A stretch of 64,000 bases of DNA, from assembly GCF_018304825.1 (NCBI RefSeq), contig NZ_CP072648.1, forward strand, positions 1,719,501-1,783,500. Reading direction: 5' to 3'. Made by a program: the position numbers and the translations under genes. Positions 2,808 to 33,961 of this stretch are shown piece by piece. The DNA is from Chloracidobacterium validum (GTDB lineage: Bacteria > Acidobacteriota > Blastocatellia > Chloracidobacteriales > Chloracidobacteriaceae). Every line of letters begins with the position of its first letter. Position 1 is the first letter of the stretch. Under the pieces are notes generated by a model that saw only the letters and a list, made by a program, of their open reading frames with translations, was not told the origin of the DNA and did not search any database.

Positions 2808-5800
2808 AGGTGCTCGCCGTTCGCGGAAAAAACCTGGCGTCCTTGACCGAATTCGACGTGTCGCTCGTCAAGGGACCGCTCGAACAGGCCGGGTTATTTG
2901 TGATTACGGGCCCGACCGGCGCGGGAAAAAGCACGCTGTTGGATGCCATGTGCCTGGCGCTTTACGGACGCCTCCCACGGATCAAAGGGGAGCGCGGTGG
3001 GCATCAACTTCCAGCCAACGCCAGCGGCTCGGACAAGTTACGGATTACCGATCCACGCCATATTGTGTCACGCAATGCCGCCGAAGCCTGTGCCGAAGTG
3101 GAGTTTTGGGGGTGTGACCGCCAACGCTGGCGGGCGCGCTGGAGTGTGCGCCGGGCGCGTGGACAACTTGCCGGAAAGCTTCAGGAAGTCAACGTCGAGC
3201 TTTTTGATGAACACGATCATGCGCACACTGCGCATCGCCGGGAGGAAACGCAGGCGCTCATTGCTCAAAAAGTCGGGTTGACATACGAGCAGTTCTGTCG
3301 GTCGGTGTTGCTGGCACAGGGCGAGTTCGCTGCGTTTCTCAAGGCCGGCGCCGATGAGCGAGCGCAAATTCTGGAGGCACTGACTGATGGAAGCCAACTC
3401 TATACGAAGCTTTCCATTGCTGCTCACCAACGGGCTGCTGACGAAAAAAGCAAGCTTCAGGAATTGGAACGTCAAGCCGGCAACTTGCAGCCCCTTTCCG
3501 AAGAGGAGCGACAGGAAGTCGAGAAGCAAAAGGCGTGTCTGACGGCCGAATGCGAGCGGCTGGCCGAAGAGCAAAAGCCGTGCGAGGAAGCCCGTCAGTG
3601 GTATGTCAAGGGTGACGCTCTCAGCCAAGATGTTCAGGTAGCAGAAGTAGCACACCGCTCGGCCCAGCAAGCGCGTCAGGAGGCCGCACCGCAGGCCCAC
3701 CACCTCGAACGGCTCGAACAAGCCGAGCGACTGCGCGGCCCTTACGAACGCTATCAATCTGCCTCTGCTGAACAGAACGCGGCAGACAAGCAACGAAGCG
3801 CCGCCGAGCAAGCATTCGAGGACGCGGAGCAGGCGCTCAAGCTTGCCAAAGCTGAAGTCGAACGCGCCGAGCAGCGGCTCGAAGGTGCACGCACTCACAG
3901 GGAGCACAAACAACCGGAGATTGACGAGGCTCGCCGGCTTGACACTGAACTTGACCACGCCCGCGCAGCCCTTGCGCAAGCCGAAGCCGACCAACACAAG
4001 TGGACGCAGGAACTCGAGCAACATACGCAGGCACTGGAAGAGGCTCTGCTTGCTCAGGCCGCGGCGGATGAGGCTATTGCCCAGGCCGACCGCTGGCTGC
4101 GCGACAACTACCGGCTCAAACCGCTGGCCGAGCAGTGGCCGCGTTGGGAACGTGGCATCCAGAACTACAACTCGCTCCACCAGAAGATCGCCGATTTGTG
4201 CGCCGATCTGGACACAGCAACACGGAAACTTCAGCAAGTCGAAGAACGTCTTGCATCGGCGCAGCAAGCGGTTCGAGATGGCGAAGCGAAGCTCGAAAAT
4301 GCCCAGGAAGAGCTTGCTGTGGCGCAGCGTGCTGTTGAAGCGCTCCAAGCAGATCACAGTCTCGAAGCACGCCAGACAGCACGGGAACGGATTGACACTG
4401 GCCGCCAACGGCTGCTGGAACTCAAGAATTTGCTGGAAGGCCTGGTGGAGGCTGAAACTGCCCGCGCTGCCGCCGCCCAGGTCGTCGCGGAGGCCACCAG
4501 CGCCATCACGAGTCTCAGAGAAAAACTTGATGCCCTTGAGCAAAAGCACGCCGAACTTGAAGCGGCTTGTCTCGCCCGTGAGCAGGACTTGAAGCTGGCC
4601 GAGGCCGCCGAGGCTTTGGCGGCTCGCCGCCCTGATTTGCTCATACCGGGAAAGCCCTGTCCGCTGTGCGGTGCTACCGAACACCCGGCCGCCGGCCAAC
4701 CCGCGCCACCAAGCGAGATCGTCAAGCGTCTCAGGGCTGAAATGGAGGCGGCCCGGCGGGAACGCGCAAGCTGCGCTCAGGAGATCCAAAAGTTGGGTAA
4801 CCAGCTTGCAGCCGAACGCGCCCGCACCGAGGAAGCCGGTCGCCACCAGTCAGACGCGGCCAAGCGTTATGCCGCGCATTTGACGCAGTGGAATACCATT
4901 TCAATAGATGAGCCAGCGCTCGTGCCACATGACCCGGAAACCGGGTCTAAACTTGACGCGGCTCTTAACCAACTTGAAAAAGAAAAAGCCAATCTTGACG
5001 CGGCAGAAAAGGCTTATGAAGCAGCCTGCAAACGGCGCGATCAGGCGCAAACCCAGGTCAACCAACTTCGGGAGCGACAACAACAGGCACAAGTAGAGCT
5101 AAACCAACTTGAGCAAACGCGCCAGTCCATTGCGTCAGAACTCAAGAACTGCCGGCAACGGCTTGAAGAACAGCAATCCCGGCAACGCCATGACTTGGAC
5201 GAACTTGACTCGGCCTTTTCCTGGCAGAACGACTGGCAAACTGCCCTTCAAACCAATCCCGTTACCTTTTTGGAAGCGGCCCAGGCATACGTCAAAAGCT
5301 GGGAAGTCACGCAGCAGCACCGCCAGCAGCAAAGTGATCAGCGGCAGGAACTCGCGCGTGAAGTTGCCATCCTCCGAACCAAATGTGAGCAGTCCAAGAG
5401 CAATCTCAGCACGGCCCGGCACAAAGTCAACGACTGCGCGATACACCTTGCCCAGCTTGAACATTCCCGCGCTCACTGCCTTGGTGGCGAACCGACCGAT
5501 GAGGTCATCTGGGCACTTGACAATGAGGTTAAGGAAGCCGAAAAGGAAGCAACGGCCGCGCGTCAGAAGCTCTTGGAAACAAGTCGCCAGCAGGCAGCGG
5601 CTCAGACAGATTGCCAAGTCGCCCAGGAACGAGAAGTCAAAGCCAAGCAGGAAGCAGCCACTGCCCGGGCGGCGCTCGACCAGGCCCTCGAAGCCGTTCA
5701 ACTCACGGAAGCAGAACTCGAATCATTACTATCCACGCCGACCGACGTGCGCCGGCAACTGCAAGATCACATCAAAGCACTGGATGATGCAGTGACGGCG

Positions 5801-6565
5801 ACGGCCGGGGCTCTCGATAGCAAACGCCAAGCGTATGAAAGCCACCTTGCGTCGCCCCGACCGGATGCTACGCGAGAAGCCATCGAGGCCAGACTTGCCG
5901 AACTCGATGGCTGCATTGCCGAAAAGTACAAGAAAATTGGCGCGCTTGACGAAAAGCTGAGACAAGACCGGGAGCTACGGGAGCGCCATGCCCAGCTTGT
6001 CCAGGAACTTGAAGCGCAAAAAGCGGTTTACGCCCGGTGGGCAGAACTTGATGACGTGATTGGTTCGTCAGACGGTAAAACGCTTCGGCTTTTCGCGCAA
6101 AGCCTGTACTTTGACGCGCTCCTCGCGCAAGCCAATTATTACTTGAAAAACCTGCGCCAGCGTTACCGCTTGGAACAGGTGAAAGATGCGGCGCTCGAGG
6201 TACAGGTGATTGACCACGATCTGGCGGATGTGGTTCGTCCGATCAGTACCTTGTCCGGTGGTGAAACATTTCTCATCTCCCTGGCGCTAGCGCTTGGATT
6301 GGCCGCGATGTCGTCGGACAAAGTCACCATCGGTTCCCTTTTCATTGACGAAGGCTTTGGCACGCTTGACCCCAAATCACTGGAAAAGGCACTGGGCATG
6401 CTCAACCAACTACAAGCTGAAGGACGCCAGATTGGTATCATTTCACATATTCCTGGACTCGCCGACCAGATTGGCTACTGCGTTGCCGTCGAACCCAACG
6501 GAACAGGCACGAGCCGCGTCTCGGTCATCGGACCACCCCAACCTGCTGTTGTTTCTACCACGTGA
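2804..6565 (+). CDS. sbcC: SbcC (Rad50-like) SMC-type ATPase
   Basis: ATPase and tether subunit of the SbcCD nuclease. 1253 residues. N-terminal Walker A GPTGAGKS (36-43), a very long Ala/Glu/Gln-rich coiled coil interrupted by the zinc hook CPLC (C619, C622), a second coiled coil, then the ABC signature LSGGE (1150-1154) and Walker B LFIDEGFGTLD (D1182, E1183). The hook sits almost exactly midway, as expected for an SMC-like dimer joined through zinc. Coupled to sbcD by an ATGA overlap. Length is somewhat above the E. coli protein, owing to the coiled coil. Confidence 0.96.
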   Translation: MKVLAVRGKNLASLTEFDVSLVKGPLEQAGLFVITGPTGAGKSTLLDAMCLALYGRLPRIKGERGGHQLPANASGSDKLRITDPRHIVSRNAAEACAEVEFWGCDRQRWRARWSVRRARGQLAGKLQEVNVELFDEHDHAHTAHRREETQALIAQKVGLTYEQFCRSVLLAQGEFAAFLKAGADERAQILEALTDGSQLYTKLSIAAHQRAADEKSKLQELERQAGNLQPLSEEERQEVEKQKACLTAECERLAEEQKPCEEARQWYVKGDALSQDVQVAEVAHRSAQQARQEAAPQAHHLERLEQAERLRGPYERYQSASAEQNAADKQRSAAEQAFEDAEQALKLAKAEVERAEQRLEGARTHREHKQPEIDEARRLDTELDHARAALAQAEADQHKWTQELEQHTQALEEALLAQAAADEAIAQADRWLRDNYRLKPLAEQWPRWERGIQNYNSLHQKIADLCADLDTATRKLQQVEERLASAQQAVRDGEAKLENAQEELAVAQRAVEALQADHSLEARQTARERIDTGRQRLLELKNLLEGLVEAETARAAAAQVVAEATSAITSLREKLDALEQKHAELEAACLAREQDLKLAEAAEALAARRPDLLIPGKPCPLCGATEHPAAGQPAPPSEIVKRLRAEMEAARRERASCAQEIQKLGNQLAAERARTEEAGRHQSDAAKRYAAHLTQWNTISIDEPALVPHDPETGSKLDAALNQLEKEKANLDAAEKAYEAACKRRDQAQTQVNQLRERQQQAQVELNQLEQTRQSIASELKNCRQRLEEQQSRQRHDLDELDSAFSWQNDWQTALQTNPVTFLEAAQAYVKSWEVTQQHRQQQSDQRQELAREVAILRTKCEQSKSNLSTARHKVNDCAIHLAQLEHSRAHCLGGEPTDEVIWALDNEVKEAEKEATAARQKLLETSRQQAAAQTDCQVAQEREVKAKQEAATARAALDQALEAVQLTEAELESLLSTPTDVRRQLQDHIKALDDAVTATAGALDSKRQAYESHLASPRPDATREAIEARLAELDGCIAEKYKKIGALDEKLRQDRELRERHAQLVQELEAQKAVYARWAELDDVIGSSDGKTLRLFAQSLYFDALLAQANYYLKNLRQRYRLEQVKDAALEVQVIDHDLADVVRPISTLSGGETFLISLALALGLAAMSSDKVTIGSLFIDEGFGTLDPKSLEKALGMLNQLQAEGRQIGIISHIPGLADQIGYCVAVEPNGTGTSRVSVIGPPQPAVVSTT

Positions 6566-7955: not shown

Positions 7956-9260
7956 ATGCATATCGCTATCATTGGTACGGGTTACGTAGGCCTCGTCACG
8001 GGGGCCTGCTTTGCCGAATTTGGCGTCAATGTCACCTGTGTGGACAAAGACACCGCCAAAATTGCCATGCTCGAAGATGGGCGCGTGCCGATTTACGAAC
8101 CCGGACTTGACGTGTTGATTGAAAAGAATCGCCGCGCCGGTCGCATTCACTTCACGACTGACTTGAAAGCCGCCGTGCAGCGGGCGCTGGTCGTCTTCAT
8201 TGCCGTGGGCACGCCGCCCAACCCAGACGGCAGCCCGGACTTGTCACAGGTTGAAGCCGTAGCCGCGCAAATTGCCGAAGCTCTGGACGGCTACAAGGTG
8301 GTGGTCACCAAAAGCACGGTGCCAACCGGCACCGGCCAGGCCATTCGGCGCGTGATGGAAGAGCGCTGTCCGGCCGGGGCCAGTTTCAGCGTGGCGTCAA
8401 ATCCTGAATTCCTGCGTGAAGGCGACGCCATCAACGATTTCATGCGTCCGGAGCGGATTGTCATTGGCTGTGAGGATGCCCAGGCCAATGCCATTTTGCG
8501 CGACCTCTATGGTCCATTGACCCAAACGGGTGTCCCATTGGTGGCAACGACCGTTGAGACTTCGGAACTCATCAAGTATGCGTCCAATGCCTTCCTGGCC
8601 GTAAAGATTTCCTTTATCAACGACATGGCCTTGCTGTGTGACCGACTCGGCTGTGACGTAGCGGATGTCGCCCGCGGCATGGGACTCGACAGCCGAATTG
8701 GCAGCAAGTTTTTGTCGCCTGGGCCAGGCTATGGAGGCTCGTGCTTCCCCAAGGATACCCAGGCCTTGGCGCACCTGGCGCGCAGCCACCAGCACACGCT
8801 CCGCATCGTCGAAGCCGGGATCGCCGTCAACAACGATATGCATGGGGCGATGGTCAACAAGATCAAGACCCTTCTAGGCGAGCCTTACCAGGACAAAGTC
8901 GCCGGGCTGCTTGGACTGACATTCAAGCCAGAAACCAGCGACCTGCGGGAATCGCCAGCCATGGCGATTGCGGCGGCCATTCGCAAACTCGGCGTGACGC
9001 TGCGCGTCAGCGATCCAGTTGCCATGCCAGAGGCTTCGACGCTGCTGCCGGACGTTACGTTCTGCGACGACCCGTATGAAACCGCGATAGGCTGCGACGT
9101 GCTCATTATCGCCACGGAGTGGAATCTTTACCGGCGGCTCGACCTCGAACGCCTGCACGCCGTCATGCGGACGCCGGCCATTGCCGACCTCCGCAATGTC
9201 TGCGATCCGGTCCAGGCCCGGCGAGCTGGATTCCGCTACTTGGGCGTTGGGCGCGGCTGA
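7956..9260 (+). CDS. ugd: UDP-glucose 6-dehydrogenase
   Basis: Oxidises UDP-glucose to UDP-glucuronate with two NAD, supplying polysaccharide and envelope synthesis. 434 residues. The N-terminal Rossmann motif is IGTGYVGLVTG (6-16), followed by the VGTPPNPDGS nucleotide loop, a KSTVPTGTG motif (from K119) and the NPEFLREGDAI signature. The catalytic cysteine is C263 in GPGYGGSCFPKDT. The C-terminal UDP-binding domain (from about 310) includes GLTFKPETSDLRESP. GDP-mannose dehydrogenase is a relative, but the length and spacing fit the UDP-glucose enzyme. Confidence 0.93.
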   Translation: MHIAIIGTGYVGLVTGACFAEFGVNVTCVDKDTAKIAMLEDGRVPIYEPGLDVLIEKNRRAGRIHFTTDLKAAVQRALVVFIAVGTPPNPDGSPDLSQVEAVAAQIAEALDGYKVVVTKSTVPTGTGQAIRRVMEERCPAGASFSVASNPEFLREGDAINDFMRPERIVIGCEDAQANAILRDLYGPLTQTGVPLVATTVETSELIKYASNAFLAVKISFINDMALLCDRLGCDVADVARGMGLDSRIGSKFLSPGPGYGGSCFPKDTQALAHLARSHQHTLRIVEAGIAVNNDMHGAMVNKIKTLLGEPYQDKVAGLLGLTFKPETSDLRESPAMAIAAAIRKLGVTLRVSDPVAMPEASTLLPDVTFCDDPYETAIGCDVLIIATEWNLYRRLDLERLHAVMRTPAIADLRNVCDPVQARRAGFRYLGVGRG

Positions 9261-28630: not shown

Positions 28631-29995
28631 CTACTCAGGCTCAGAAACTGGCGCGTCGCCTGAGCGGCGCAACCCAAACTTTTCCAGTCGGTACTGAAGT
28701 GTGCGGAACGTCAACCCCAGGAGCTTGGCGGCGCGGGTGATGTTCCAGTCGGTTTTTTCCATGGCCTGAATGATGAGTGAGCGCTCGACTTCCTCAAACG
28801 AGATGCCTTCTGGTGGCAGCCGGAATTGAAAAGACGGGGCGGCTTCAGCCTCCGGCAGTCCGGCCGCCTGGCGGATTTCAACCGGCAGGTCTTCCAGGCC
28901 GAGCATATCCCCCTCGCATAACAAAGCGGCCCGCTTGAGGGCTGATTCGAGCTGGCGGACGTTGCCTGGCCAGTCATAGGCTTGCAAAACTTGGAGCGCC
29001 GCCGGGGTTATCGTGTAGTGATTTGGGCCGCGTGACTGTCGCGCCAGAAAACACTCGACCAATAGCGGGATGTCATCCCGCCGGTCGCGCAACGGTGGCA
29101 AGTGGATTGGAATTACGTTGAGTCGGTAGTAGAGGTCTTCACGAAAGGTCTTGGCTGCCACCATGGCTTCCAATGGACGATTCGTCGCTGCCACGACCCG
29201 GACATCCACCTTGATGACTTTGGTCGAACCGACGCGCTGCACTTCACCTTCCTGGAGAGCGCGCAAGAGTTTGGCCTGGAGCGCCACGTTGAGTTCACCG
29301 ATTTCGTCAAGAAAGAGTGTTCCCCGGTCGGCGACTTCAAACAGCCCCTTCTTTTCGGCAACCGCGCCGGTGAACGCGCCTTTCTCGTGGCCGAAGAGTT
29401 CGGATTCAAGCAGGTTTTCGTTGATGGCCGCGCAGTTGACGACGTGAAAGACGGCCGCGGCACGCGGACTGTGCCGATGAAGCGCCCGCGCGACGAGTTC
29501 CTTGCCCGTCCCGCTTTCACCCCGCACGAGCACGGTTTCATCCGAGACCGCCACCTTGAGGATCATCTTTTTCAGCTTCTGCATTGGCTCGCTCGCACCG
29601 ACTAGGTCATCATCGAGCGCGTCCAGGCGGGACAGGGCTTGCGTCAGCACTGCCAGCAAACGCTCACGGTCGAGTGGTTTTTCCAGATAATCCACAGCCC
29701 CCAGACGCAAGGCCTCCTTGACGGATTCAATCGAACCATGCGCCGTCATCAGGATCACCAGTTGGGAAGCGTCGGCTTGTGTGAGCGCGCGGAGCAAATC
29801 CAACCCGCTTTGCCCTCCCATTTTGAGGTCGGTCAGCACCAGATCGAACCGCTCGGCTTTGGTCATCCGCAGGGCGGCTTCGGCGCTGGGCGCGGTCGCC
29901 GTCCGGTAGCCTTCTGCCGACAGGATCATGTCCAAGATGTCGCGCTGATTTTGTTCGTCATCTACGATGAGAATGCTTCGCTTCGTCGGCGTCAT
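28631..29995 (-). CDS. NtrC-family sigma-54-dependent response regulator
   Basis: 454 residues. Receiver domain with DDE at 12-14, phosphoacceptor D56 (VLTDLKM) and K106 (LEKPLD). An AAA+ domain has Walker A GESGTGKE (159-166), the sigma-54 contact loop GAFTGA (206-211) and Walker B GTLFLDEI (225-232). The C-terminal Fis-type helix-turn-helix is NITRAAKLLGLTFRTLQYRL. Complete and likely active. The partner kinase is not in the window. It is 17 bases after the dnaE N-half gene and 6 bases before atpI, an unusual position for such a regulator. Confidence 0.95.
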   Translation of the reverse strand: MTPTKRSILIVDDEQNQRDILDMILSAEGYRTATAPSAEAALRMTKAERFDLVLTDLKMGGQSGLDLLRALTQADASQLVILMTAHGSIESVKEALRLGAVDYLEKPLDRERLLAVLTQALSRLDALDDDLVGASEPMQKLKKMILKVAVSDETVLVRGESGTGKELVARALHRHSPRAAAVFHVVNCAAINENLLESELFGHEKGAFTGAVAEKKGLFEVADRGTLFLDEIGELNVALQAKLLRALQEGEVQRVGSTKVIKVDVRVVAATNRPLEAMVAAKTFREDLYYRLNVIPIHLPPLRDRRDDIPLLVECFLARQSRGPNHYTITPAALQVLQAYDWPGNVRQLESALKRAALLCEGDMLGLEDLPVEIRQAAGLPEAEAAPSFQFRLPPEGISFEEVERSLIIQAMEKTDWNITRAAKLLGLTFRTLQYRLEKFGLRRSGDAPVSEPE

Positions 29996-30012: not shown

Positions 30013-30480
30013 TCAATGTCCAGGCGAACCGGCCGCGCGTGCGCCGGGCAACGGCAACGTCCGCGCAGCTACTGCTTCTGGCTGGACACGGTCTGGCCGA
30101 ACACTTGCCGGCTCGTCCCAAGCATAGAGCGCCAGACCGCGCGCGAGAATGTCCCGCAACGGCAGAAACACCGCCTGCCCATCGGCATCGCGGGTGTAGA
30201 ACTTATGGTCGAGCGTGCAGCGCAGGGTTCGCCCATCCTCCAGCTCAACTTCAACCACGTCTTTTTCGCCCGTCGGGAAGGCGTCCACCAGTTCGTTCAA
30301 GACCACGGCCTGACCGTCCCAGCTATAGGTCTGAAGTGGCGCCTGATGAGCCGCGGACTGGGGCGCTTCCACGTCCTGGCCGGCGACCCTGGATGCGCTC
30401 TCTAAGCGGGTGACCAGTTCCCCGACTGTCACGGCTTCGCCCGTCGCCGCATCCACCAGGGTGGCATCGCCGGTGACGCA
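30013..30480 (-). other. Candidate split-intein N-fragment within dnaE
   Basis: 155 codons from Cys766 to the stop. The first residue is Cys (nucleophile of the first splicing step) in a block-A-like CVTGDATLVDAATGEAVTVG. Block B reads VEVELEDGRTLRCTLDHKFY with the TxxH motif (T89, H92 of the fragment), followed by a hydrophobic LPLRDILARGLALYAWD as at the end of DnaE-type Int-N. There is no endonuclease domain and no C-terminal His-Asn block. Cyanobacterial Int-N fragments are of similar size (about 100-125). The junction after FNK puts Ser of SHS at +1, a permitted splicing residue. Confidence 0.82.
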
Positions 30481-32775
30481 CTTGTTGAAGGCATAGTCGG
30501 CAAAACCTTCGAGCTGTTGCCAGAGCTTTTCGAGCTTGGCCCGGTCGTGCCCGCGCTCAACAGCCTGCGCTATGAACTTGGCTTTGTGGGCATCGAGTTC
30601 CTCACGCTTTTTCTTTCCCATGGCGCGGCGGACCAAGTCGGCTTCGCCCAGCGAATAGCCCGCCAACTGCTGGAAAATCGCCATGATTTGCTCCTGAAAC
30701 ACCGGCACGCCATAGGTCGTTTCCAAGACGCCTTTCAGCTCTTTGAAATCGTACGTCACGCGCCGCCGTCCATGGCGTCGCTCGATGTAGTCGTCCACCA
30801 TGCCTGAATCAAGCGGGCCGGGCCGGTAAAGGGCATTGAGCGCTACAATGTCATCCAAGCCGCTGGGCTTGAGGCGGCGCGCAATTTCACTAATCCCATC
30901 GCCCTCAAACTGAAAGACCGCGTTTGTCTTGCCGTCGGCAAACATTTTTAGCGCCGCTGGGTCATCCACGGGAATGGTCGTCAAGTCGGGGCGCGTGCCG
31001 GTTTCCTTCTCGATGCTGGCGAGGCAGTCCTCGATGATGGTCAGCGTCGTCAGCCCAAGAAAATCCATCTTGAGCATGCCGGCCTTTTCGAGGTCATTCA
31101 TGTTGTACTGCGTCGCGGTGACTTCGACTTCCCCACGTTCACGGTCGCGGGTCTTGGTCTTGAAAACCGGCACAAGTTCGTGAACCGGCCGGGGCGAAAT
31201 CACCACGCCAGCAGCATGGATGGACGAATGCCGCGCCCCACCTTCCAACCGCTGGGCCAGGTCAATCAGACGTTTGACTTCGGGTTTCCTGTCATAAGCT
31301 TCTTTGAGTTCGGGCACCATTTTGAGCGCGTCAGCAATCGAGACGTTGCGCCCACGCTGCGGCGGCGGAATGAGCTTGGCAATCTTCTCAACCTCCGGGT
31401 AGGGCATTTCCAGCACGCGCCCCACATCCTTGATGACCGCGCGCGAGGCCATGGTTCCAAACGTCGCAATCTGTGAGACGTTCTCGCGTCCATAAAACTG
31501 ACTGACGTACTCAATGACCGTGCTACGCCCACGCATGCAGAAGTCCACATCAATGTCCGGCATCGAGACGCGCTCAGGATTCAAAAAGCGCTCGAAAAGC
31601 AAATCGTGGGCAATCGGGTCCACATCGGTAATGTGGAGCGCGTAGGCTACCAGTGAACCGGCCGCGCTGCCCCGCCCCGGCCCAACCGGGATGCCGCGCT
31701 CACGCGCATGGCGGATGAAGTCCCAGACAATGAGGAAGTAGCCTTCATAGCCCATGCGCTCGATGATGCCGATTTCGTAGTCGAGTCGCGCTTGATATTT
31801 CTCCGGCTCGGCCGAAGCATTTTGGCGCAGGCGTTCATCGAGGCCGCAGCGCGTGACATGCTCGAAATAACTCGTCAGTGTGAAGCCTTCGGGAACCGGA
31901 AACACCGGCAAGTAGTTTGGCGACTTGCCAAACTCAAAGGTGCACATTTCGGCAATCCGCAGCGTGTTGCGCAGCGCCTCCGGGTTTTCGTTCCCCCACA
32001 GCGCCCACATTTCTTCCTGGCTCTTGACGTAGTGGTCCGGCGAGTAGTGAAAGCTTGCCTCGCGCAGTGGCTTGCCGGTCTGGAGGCACAGGAGCGCGCG
32101 GTGCGCTTCGTGGTCGGCTTCTGTTAGGAAATGGGCGTCGTTGGTCACGACCAACGGCACATCGAGCCGCTCGGCAATTTCGGTGAGCGCGCGATTGACC
32201 TTGGTTTGCGCCTCCTCAACGCCACGGTGCAACTGAAGCTCAAGGAAGTAGCGCCCGCGCCCAAAGATTTCATTGTATTCGCCAACCTCGCAGGCCGCCC
32301 GATCCGGCTTGTCGCGTAAAATGAGCGAGGCCGGCACGCCCGACATGCAAGCCGACAGCGCCACCAAACCTTCCCGGTGGGCGTGAAGCACTTCCTTGTC
32401 AATCCGCGGCTTGTAGTAGTACCCCTCGGTGTAGCCCAGCGACGCCAACTTGACGAGGTTTTTATAGCCCGTTTCGTCGGTGGCCAACAGAATCAGGTGA
32501 TTGGTTCCGCGCTCGCCTTCGGTGTCAAGCTTCCCACGGTCATGGCGGGAGCCACGCGCCACATAAGCCTCCATGCCGATAATTGGCTTGACGCCAACCT
32601 TTTTCATGGCGTTGGCAAAGCCCATCGCGCCAAACATGTTGCCGTGGTCGGTGACAGCCATGGCGCTGAATCCCAGGCGCTGGGCCTGTTCGGCTAATGC
32701 GCCGTGCTGAATGGCGCCATCGAGCAAGCTGTAATCAGAATGCAGATGCAAGTGGACGAAGTCTTTTGTTGCCAT
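30013..32775 (-). CDS. dnaE: DNA polymerase III alpha subunit, N-terminal half fused to an N-terminal intein fragment
   Basis: 920 residues starting at the ATG giving MATKDFVHLHLHSDYSLLDG. The PHP domain (H8, H10, H12) is followed by the polymerase core with catalytic D407 and D409 (PDIDVDF) and D571 (KMDFLGLTTLTII). The polymerase sequence is normal up to GFADYAFNK (residue 765). In normal DnaE this runs on into SHSAAYG; here it continues CVTGDATLVDAATG and ends 155 residues later. The remaining ~350 residues (fingers end, HhH, OB fold) are absent, and the next gene starts 17 bases on. The layout is that of a split-intein DnaE-N gene, so a second gene with the C-half is predicted elsewhere in the genome. 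Confidence 0.9.
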   Translation of the reverse strand: MATKDFVHLHLHSDYSLLDGAIQHGALAEQAQRLGFSAMAVTDHGNMFGAMGFANAMKKVGVKPIIGMEAYVARGSRHDRGKLDTEGERGTNHLILLATDETGYKNLVKLASLGYTEGYYYKPRIDKEVLHAHREGLVALSACMSGVPASLILRDKPDRAACEVGEYNEIFGRGRYFLELQLHRGVEEAQTKVNRALTEIAERLDVPLVVTNDAHFLTEADHEAHRALLCLQTGKPLREASFHYSPDHYVKSQEEMWALWGNENPEALRNTLRIAEMCTFEFGKSPNYLPVFPVPEGFTLTSYFEHVTRCGLDERLRQNASAEPEKYQARLDYEIGIIERMGYEGYFLIVWDFIRHARERGIPVGPGRGSAAGSLVAYALHITDVDPIAHDLLFERFLNPERVSMPDIDVDFCMRGRSTVIEYVSQFYGRENVSQIATFGTMASRAVIKDVGRVLEMPYPEVEKIAKLIPPPQRGRNVSIADALKMVPELKEAYDRKPEVKRLIDLAQRLEGGARHSSIHAAGVVISPRPVHELVPVFKTKTRDRERGEVEVTATQYNMNDLEKAGMLKMDFLGLTTLTIIEDCLASIEKETGTRPDLTTIPVDDPAALKMFADGKTNAVFQFEGDGISEIARRLKPSGLDDIVALNALYRPGPLDSGMVDDYIERRHGRRRVTYDFKELKGVLETTYGVPVFQEQIMAIFQQLAGYSLGEADLVRRAMGKKKREELDAHKAKFIAQAVERGHDRAKLEKLWQQLEGFADYAFNKCVTGDATLVDAATGEAVTVGELVTRLESASRVAGQDVEAPQSAAHQAPLQTYSWDGQAVVLNELVDAFPTGEKDVVEVELEDGRTLRCTLDHKFYTRDADGQAVFLPLRDILARGLALYAWDEPASVRPDRVQPEAVAARTLPLPGARAAGSPGH

Positions 32776-33076: not shown

Positions 33077-33961
33077 CTAAATCACCATGCACGCCAACTG
33101 CGACGGGATGAGGTCTTCCTCCAGGGCTGGGTCAAGTCCGCCTAGGCTGCGCGTTCGCATGATGTCACTGGAGAAAGCCTCGAAATCCACGGCTTTAGGG
33201 AGCTTGGGCGTGCCATGGAGGATGGCCCATTCAATGTCTTCAAAGTAACCCCGGTGTTTCGGGTCATCTGAAATCAACTGGAAGGCCATACTCCGGTTGC
33301 GGATTTCGTCTGACAACGGAATGCTGGTAATGATGTCAATCCCAGCCTCGCGCGCGTACCGCTCACCCCAACCAGAGCCGTCGTCACGGTTGACCACCAT
33401 TCCCAAAACGCGCGTTGCCCCGCCCTGTTCGGCAAAGTAGCGAACCGCGCCGCACAAGTTGTTGACGACATAGAGCGCCTGGTGATCATTGCCGCCAATC
33501 AGGATGATGTCCCGCACCATGGACTTGGCAATGGGCGTTCCAAAGCCGCCACAGACGACATCCCCAAGAAAGTCGTAAATGACGTAGTCAAACTCCCAAT
33601 CCTCAAAACCCATTTGCGACAGCAAATCAAAGCTCAACGTGATGCCGCGTCCGCCGCAACCGCGTCCGACTTCAGGCCCGCCGAGTTCCATGGCAAAGAC
33701 GCCATGGCGTTTGAACACAACTTCACTAATGGGGGGCACGAGACTTGCCGCTTTGGCTTCTTGGCGCAATGCCCAGGCTTCAAGCAGCGTGGGCAGTGAC
33801 TTGCCACCAAAGAGCAACGCGGTAGAGTCGTGCTTCGGATCACACCCGATCTGGAGAACGCGGTGCGACTTGCCAGCCAAGTAATAACTGAGATTTGAGG
33901 TAATGAAAGACTTTCCACTTCCGCCCTTACCATAAATGGCAACAACGCGACGTGCTGACAT
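33077..33961 (-). CDS. bchX: Chlorophyllide a reductase iron protein BchX
   Basis: 294-residue nitrogenase-like iron protein that passes electrons to BchYZ in bacteriochlorophyll synthesis. P-loop YGKGGSGKSF, switch IGCDPKHDSTALLFGGK, and the two [4Fe-4S] cysteines in LGGPEVGRGCGGRG and LGDVVCGGFG. The ALLFGGKSLPT stretch and the ELGGPEVGRGCGGRG form fit BchX better than BchL (which has TLTGF) or NifH. It is shorter than purple-bacterial BchX at both ends. A GGGAGG site is seven bases before the ATG. No other pigment gene is adjacent; bchY and bchZ must be elsewhere. Confidence 0.88.
   Translation of the reverse strand: MSARRVVAIYGKGGSGKSFITSNLSYYLAGKSHRVLQIGCDPKHDSTALLFGGKSLPTLLEAWALRQEAKAASLVPPISEVVFKRHGVFAMELGGPEVGRGCGGRGITLSFDLLSQMGFEDWEFDYVIYDFLGDVVCGGFGTPIAKSMVRDIILIGGNDHQALYVVNNLCGAVRYFAEQGGATRVLGMVVNRDDGSGWGERYAREAGIDIITSIPLSDEIRNRSMAFQLISDDPKHRGYFEDIEWAILHGTPKLPKAVDFEAFSSDIMRTRSLGGLDPALEEDLIPSQLACMVI

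What the first reader, a model, noticed from the sequence alone, without database searches (positions are those of the whole stretch)
30013..32775. DnaE ends in a candidate split intein, with the polymerase C-half missing
Seen: the polymerase III alpha frame is intact with D407, D409 and D571, but after FADYAFNK (residue 765) it switches to CVTGDATLVDAATG and runs 155 residues with a block-B TxxH motif, then stops; the next gene starts 17 bases on. Known: natural split DnaE inteins are described from cyanobacteria, where DnaE-N ends in Int-N. Inferred: this organism splices its replicative polymerase in trans, with a junction four residues downstream of the cyanobacterial one and Ser at +1.
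Basis: partly seen in the sequence, partly recalled or inferred. Interest (0 to 1): 0.92.

Follow-up and report, generated by a model that had tools for sequence, protein, structure and literature searches.

The report
Split, trans-spliced DNA polymerase in Chloracidobacterium
This photosynthetic acidobacterium encodes its only replicative DNA polymerase as two genes some 716 kb apart, each carrying half of a self-splicing intein that should join the two proteins, and its relatives still show the uninterrupted and half-broken stages from which such a split can arise.

Summary
Confirmed, and the missing half was found. The window lies in a two-chromosome genome whose size matches Chloracidobacterium validum BV2-C. 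Its only dnaE-type polymerase gene ends after FADYAFNK765 in a 155-residue Int-N. About 716 kb away a second gene starts MSLREIKIARVTP...HNYFVNGILTAN|SHSVCYG..., that is a 40-residue Int-C, Ser at +1, and the last 397 residues of DnaE. All seven Chloracidobacterium genomes have both halves at separate places, with catalytic residues kept and Int-N core and Int-C under purifying selection. The site lies four residues downstream of the cyanobacterial one. The end is Ala-Asn, not His-Asn, as in Synechocystis DnaE. Relatives in the class Blastocatellia show a series: no intein (most); one contiguous mini-intein; adjacent halves with a Uma2-family gene between; five genomes with Int-N, an out-of-frame free-standing LAGLIDADG endonuclease gene, and Int-C in overlapping order; and one where that gene is a 22-codon relic. 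Intein and polymerase trees disagree in a way that indicates horizontal transfer of the already split form. Splicing itself was not tested. New variant of a known kind: a split DnaE intein outside cyanobacteria, with surviving intermediates.

The parts
30013..32775 (-). dnaE-N: N-part of DNA polymerase III alpha fused to Int-N, 920 aa plus stop
   Evidence: only PF17657 (finger) match in the genome
30481..32775 (-). N-extein, residues 1-765, ending FADYAFNK; catalytic D407, D409, D571
   Evidence: matched by intact intein-less homologues reading FADYAFNR-SHS
30124..30480 (-). Int-N core, 119 residues: Cys1, block A CVTGDATL, block B CTLDH, ending LALY
   Evidence: pN/pS 0.28 in the genus; Cys1 and TxxH invariant in 11 homologues
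30205..30216 (-). block-B TxxH motif (T89-L90-D91-H92 of the Int-N)
   Evidence: T and H invariant
30016..30123 (-). Int-N tail, 36 residues, variable in length and sequence; at the place where intein endonucleases usually sit
   Evidence: mean identity 0.25, pN/pS 0.75
28631..29995 (-). next gene downstream, sigma-54-type response regulator; a neighbour, not part of the system
33077..33961 (-). upstream neighbour, NifH/frxC family protein (bchX-like); not part of the system. The partner gene dnaE-C (Int-C + C-extein) lies outside the window at G000:C1:2468172-2469485 (-) (within L004:1673-3004)
   Evidence: neighbour; partner gene

Best explanation
The organism makes its only replicative DNA polymerase III alpha subunit as two polypeptides, DnaE-N (765 aa) with Int-N, and Int-C (40 aa) with DnaE-C (397 aa). 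The two intein halves associate and form one splicing domain. Cys1 attacks the K765 bond, Ser+1 takes over the N-extein, Asn40 of Int-C cyclises, and the chains are joined as FADYAFNK-SHSVCYG, giving a 1162-residue DnaE. The split most likely arose in Blastocatellia through a form in which Int-N, a free-standing endonuclease gene and Int-C were separate overlapping ORFs at one locus; in the Chloracidobacterium ancestor the endonuclease was lost and rearrangement moved the halves apart. Shown by sequence: both genes, both intein halves, conserved residues, no intact copy, conservation in seven genomes, the series in relatives. Inferred: the chemistry, and the order of evolutionary steps.
For: Single finger domain and single HHH_6 match in the genome, in two different genes. 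Int-C ending HNYFVNGILTAN then SHS. All seven genus genomes have both halves at separate places. A contiguous homologue at the same site in G009 reads straight through Int-N, Int-C and C-extein in one frame, matches the solved Ssp DnaE intein 1zd7 over residues 7-160 (E 1e-9), and aligns with both halves. Cys1, TxxH, the final Asn and Ser+1 are invariant. Int-N core pN/pS 0.28 and Int-C 0.21, against C-extein 0.21 and Int-N tail 0.75. Intermediates with adjacent halves.
Against: No protein or splicing data. The AlphaFold model of Int-N alone is poor (pTM 0.36) and gave no significant fold match, as may be expected of half a domain. Synonymous sites are near saturation between species, so the pN/pS values are rough. 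The order of events is not settled by the intein tree, whose deep forks are weak.
Confidence: 0.93

Rival explanations
1. The polymerase works as two non-covalently associated subunits, and the intein halves are splicing-dead relics or act only as a dimerisation domain.
For: No splicing was measured; the penultimate Int-C residue is Ala rather than His.
Against: Cys1, TxxH, the final Asn and Ser+1 are kept in all seven genomes and both halves are under purifying selection like the extein. Ala before Asn also occurs in the Ssp DnaE split intein sequence.
Confidence: 0.04
2. The gene is a broken pseudogene or an assembly error and an intact dnaE exists elsewhere.
For: The reading frame stops after two thirds of DnaE.
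Against: Complete two-contig genome, one finger-domain match, the same arrangement in seven separately assembled genomes, and both halves are open without stops.
Confidence: 0.01
3. The Chloracidobacterium split is the cyanobacterial split DnaE intein acquired by horizontal transfer, the two groups sharing hot-spring mats.
For: Best solved-structure matches are cyanobacterial DnaE inteins.
Against: Different insertion site, four residues apart; closest relatives, 50-66% identical, are acidobacterial inteins at the same site; the DnaB intein 1mi8 scores as well as Ssp DnaE with the family profile; in the tree Ssp DnaE sits on a long branch of unsure place.
Confidence: 0.03
4. The contiguous intein in G009 is the ancestral state and the Chloracidobacterium split arose directly from it by a break, with the endonuclease-bearing fractured form a separate offshoot. 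This concerns the route, not the present mechanism.
For: G009 is in the same family as Chloracidobacterium and carries no endonuclease ORF; Chloracidobacterium Int-N tails show no endonuclease relic in any frame.
Against: The G009 linker is alignable with the Int-N tail that overlaps the endonuclease start in other genomes (SEEVEAFTASSLE against SEEVERYAPNSLE), and G007 of the same family is split too.
Confidence: 0.4

Closest known systems
Cyanobacterial split DnaE inteins (Ssp, Npu DnaE)
   Same: Same host protein; dnaE in two distant genes; Int-N of about 100 and Int-C of about 36-40 residues, split at the usual endonuclease position; Cys1; Int-C ending Ala-Asn as in Ssp; sequence similarity (1zd7, E 1e-9 with the contiguous homologue).
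   Different: Another phylum; insertion four residues downstream (FNK|S instead of Y|CFNK); Ser instead of Cys at +1; an Int-N tail of 29-38 extra residues; relatives with contiguous and adjacent-split stages exist.
Fractured genes with split inteins and a free-standing endonuclease (Dassa et al. 2009, known to me but not held here)
   Same: Int-N gene, endonuclease ORF and Int-C gene side by side, as in G025, G033, G147, G150 and G151.
   Different: LAGLIDADG_3 endonuclease instead of the EDxHD (DUF559/Vsr-like) kind; a cellular replicative polymerase in bacteria instead of mostly phage or metagenomic genes; overlapping ORFs joined by ATGA; a related group with fully separated halves.
Contiguous DnaE mini-intein of G009 and the DnaE intein of viral contig L071
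   Same: Same or nearly the same place in DnaE; homologous intein (G009 50-66% identical to the split ones; L071 33% identical to the G009 query).
   Different: Splicing in cis from one reading frame; in L071 the site is two residues further on (FNRAH|S).

Membership tests
Natural split DnaE intein | dnaE encoded by two separate genes, no intact copy | tested here: met
Natural split DnaE intein | Int-N with Cys1 and block-B TxxH fused to DnaE-N | tested here: met
Natural split DnaE intein | Int-C with terminal Asn fused to DnaE-C with Cys/Ser/Thr at +1 | tested here: met
   ..HNYFVNGILTAN|SHS
Natural split DnaE intein | trans-splicing of the polymerase | not testable with these tools
   no protein data
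Cyanobacterial DnaE intein allele | insertion between Tyr and CFNK of DnaE | tested here: not met
   N-extein here ends AFNK; cyanobacterial C-extein starts CFNK (PMC2664965)
Cyanobacterial DnaE intein allele | groups with cyanobacterial inteins in a tree | tested here: inconclusive
   long branches, only Ssp included
Fractured gene with free-standing endonuclease (five relatives) | endonuclease ORF between Int-N and Int-C genes | tested here: met
   for G025, G033, G147, G150, G151
Fractured gene with free-standing endonuclease (Chloracidobacterium itself) | endonuclease ORF between Int-N and Int-C genes | tested here: not met
   no match in the seven genus genomes; halves lie far apart

The most novel reading that the evidence does not exclude
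The Blastocatellia form Int-N / out-of-frame LAGLIDADG gene / Int-C is a mobile intein that is already split when it arrives: on homing into an intact dnaE it turns the gene into three coupled ORFs at once, and the distant split fixed in Chloracidobacterium is its end stage after loss of the endonuclease and genome rearrangement. Splitting would then be a built-in property of the invading element and not a later accident.
Probability: 0.45. Interest if true: 0.85.

Novelty: new variant of a known kind. Interest (0 to 1): 0.78.

Why it matters
The natural split DnaE inteins that I know of, and those named in the papers read here, are cyanobacterial, and their origin is usually described only as a presumed break in a mini-intein (PMC7765530). 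Here an acidobacterial genus depends on what looks like trans-splicing for its only replicative polymerase, and living relatives preserve uninterrupted, locally broken and endonuclease-bearing forms at the same site. That makes the origin of split inteins testable. It also gives a set of new split inteins, some from moderately thermophilic hosts, for protein ligation.

Tried and rejected
Structure prediction of the Int-N alone (10 sequences): mean pLDDT 67, pTM 0.36, no significant match in the PDB; uninformative, not counted against. Gene order around both halves was compared across 19 loci: conserved within the genus (dnaE-C next to pdxS, and near gyrA in five of seven) but no shared context with G007 or G009 that would show which half stayed at the ancestral place. 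A tree with Ssp DnaE, Ssp DnaB and a phage intein does not resolve the relation to cyanobacterial inteins because of long branches. Search of annotated phages gave only distant inteins, in DnaB and ribonucleotide reductase genes where annotated. I considered that Uma2-family genes near dnaE-C in some Chloracidobacterium are linked to the Uma2 gene between the halves in G007; the two compared are only 35% identical over 88 residues, so I treat this as coincidence.

Full report
Setting. The window is G000:C1:1719501-1783500 of a genome of 3,659,143 bases in two contigs. That size equals the one given for Chloracidobacterium validum BV2-C (class Blastocatellia) in PMC8245765, and a NifH/frxC family gene of the bchX kind lies next door, so I take the organism to be that strain. 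The paper mentions neither DnaE nor inteins.

The observation. The ORF at 30013-32775 (-) is 920 aa, with intact PHP, polymerase and finger domains, the three catalytic aspartates at 407, 409 and 571, and a switch after FADYAFNK765 to 155 residues of intein-like sequence with block-B CTLDH. The next ORF starts 17 bases on.

The missing half. PF17657 (finger) and the N-part give one match each in the genome, both in the window. PF14579 (helix-hairpin-helix of DnaE) also gives one match, at C1:2468952-2469218. The gene around it (within L004:1673-3004, -) starts MSLREIKIARVTPVGVAPTYNVTMRAPLHNYFVNGILTAN and continues SHSVCYGVLAYRTAYLKAHYPAHF to the end of DnaE, 397 residues from Ser+1. The two genes are about 716 kb apart. 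Joined at K|S they give FADYAFNK-SHSVCYG, the sequence expected from intein-less relatives (FADYAFNR-SHS), and 1162 residues.

Is it an intein? The contiguous homologue in G009 (below) matches the solved Synechocystis DnaE split intein 1zd7 over residues 7-160 with E 1.2e-9; a profile of 11 members gives 1.3e-11; the window's Int-N alone gives 4e-6 to the same entry. Cys1, the block-B Thr and His, the block-F H-N, the final Asn and Ser+1 are invariant.

Conservation. All seven genus genomes carry both genes at separate places. pN/pS among them is 0.10 for the N-extein, 0.28 for the Int-N core, 0.21 for Int-C, 0.21 for the C-extein and 0.75 for the Int-N tail. Synonymous sites are near saturation, so these are relative values. 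The contrast between core and tail is what a working splicing domain with a free end would show.

Relatives. Of 162 genomes of the class, 15 hold this intein at this site. Outside the class, a 396-genome sample of the phylum and a pattern scan of the 84,980 species genomes gave none (the scan is limited by its peptide patterns). The states are: (a) no intein, intact dnaE, for example G010, G011, G021 and G040. (b) G009, same family as Chloracidobacterium: one frame running through N-extein, a 160-residue mini-intein and C-extein. (c) G007, same family: Int-N ends with a stop, a Uma2-family ORF follows, then Int-C with C-extein. (d) G025 and G033 in one family, G147, G150 and G151 in another: Int-N, then a LAGLIDADG_3 protein of about 270 residues in the +1 frame whose start overlaps the end of Int-N by 23-44 bases and whose stop overlaps an Int-C start codon as ATGA, in all five; Int-C lies in the frame of Int-N. 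(e) G014: the same without the endonuclease, of which a 22-codon relic MPRTAWNKRLTPEIEERITRYL* joins its first and last codons (read from the DNA). (f) Chloracidobacterium: halves far apart, no endonuclease. The genomes of states c to e that were searched for the C-part (G007, G014, G025, G033) have no second copy of it.

Transfer. The extein tree puts G147, G150 and G151 far from G014, G025 and G033 (100/99), on a branch of 1.2 changes per site. In the intein tree they group with G033 within the G014, G025, G033 cluster (90/92 and 92/92) on short branches. With the endonuclease family confined to these five genomes apart from one partial distant match, this indicates horizontal transfer of the already split, endonuclease-bearing form. 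Intein-less members of that family (G021, G040) have Ala at +1 (FNR-AHS), which could not take part in splicing.

Route to the distant split. That endonuclease loss leaves an adjacent split pair is shown by the relic in G014. That rearrangement then parted the pair in Chloracidobacterium is inferred; the genus is known for extensive rearrangement between species (PMC8245765). Whether G009 is the uninterrupted ancestor or a re-fused derivative is open: its linker aligns with the Int-N tail that in other genomes overlaps the endonuclease start, and the deep intein forks are weak.

Comparison with what is known. It works like the cyanobacterial split DnaE inteins, and it is a natural split DnaE intein by every sequence feature tested. 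It is not the cyanobacterial allele: the Synechocystis C-extein starts CFNK (PMC2664965), while here FNK belongs to the N-extein and +1 is Ser. The relation in descent to the cyanobacterial inteins is unresolved. The five endonuclease-bearing relatives resemble the fractured genes of Dassa et al. 2009 (from my knowledge; the paper is not held), with a different endonuclease class. Searches of the held literature for inteins together with Chloracidobacterium, Acidobacteria or Blastocatellia found no report of this; subscription journals and intein databases are not covered, so a prior listing cannot be excluded.

Verdict. Confidence in trans-splicing 0.93; the remaining doubt is that the spliced protein has not been shown.

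Noticed in passing
L042 (G009), L041 (G007), L045 (G033): These dnaE genes hold a second, larger intein upstream, ending ..VGNNI(V/I)LHN|C(T/V)YQEQ, so the polymerase of G009 carries two contiguous inteins and those of G007 and G033 carry one contiguous and one split intein.
   Followed up: partly
L071 (IMGVR_UViG_3300009149_006183), 3531-6008: A viral contig encodes a DnaE-like polymerase with a contiguous intein at FNRAH|S, two residues downstream of the Blastocatellia site; with the cyanobacterial site this makes three intein sites within six residues of one polymerase motif.
   Followed up: partly
L047, about 8450-8530, and the same place in five other genus genomes (pdxS to dnaE-C): A strong hairpin with compensatory changes (GGGCGTTGCC/GGCAACGCCC, GGACGTTGCC/GGCAACGTCC) lies between pdxS and dnaE-C in six of seven genomes, mostly followed by a T-rich stretch; probably the pdxS terminator, with a promoter-like TGGACA-18-TATGCT overlapping it in L047.
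   Followed up: partly
L030 (G021), L031 (G040): Intein-less members of the family that holds the fractured intein have Ala at the would-be +1 position (FNR-AHS), possibly after loss of the intein or as protection against it.
   Followed up: no
L004:787-1413 (-): A Uma2-family gene lies between dnaE-C and gyrA in the window's genome; another, only distantly related, separates Int-N from Int-C in G007.
   Followed up: partly
window Int-N, residues 26-46 (about 30343-30405): The Int-N of this species carries an insertion of 15 residues absent from the six other species of the genus.
   Followed up: no
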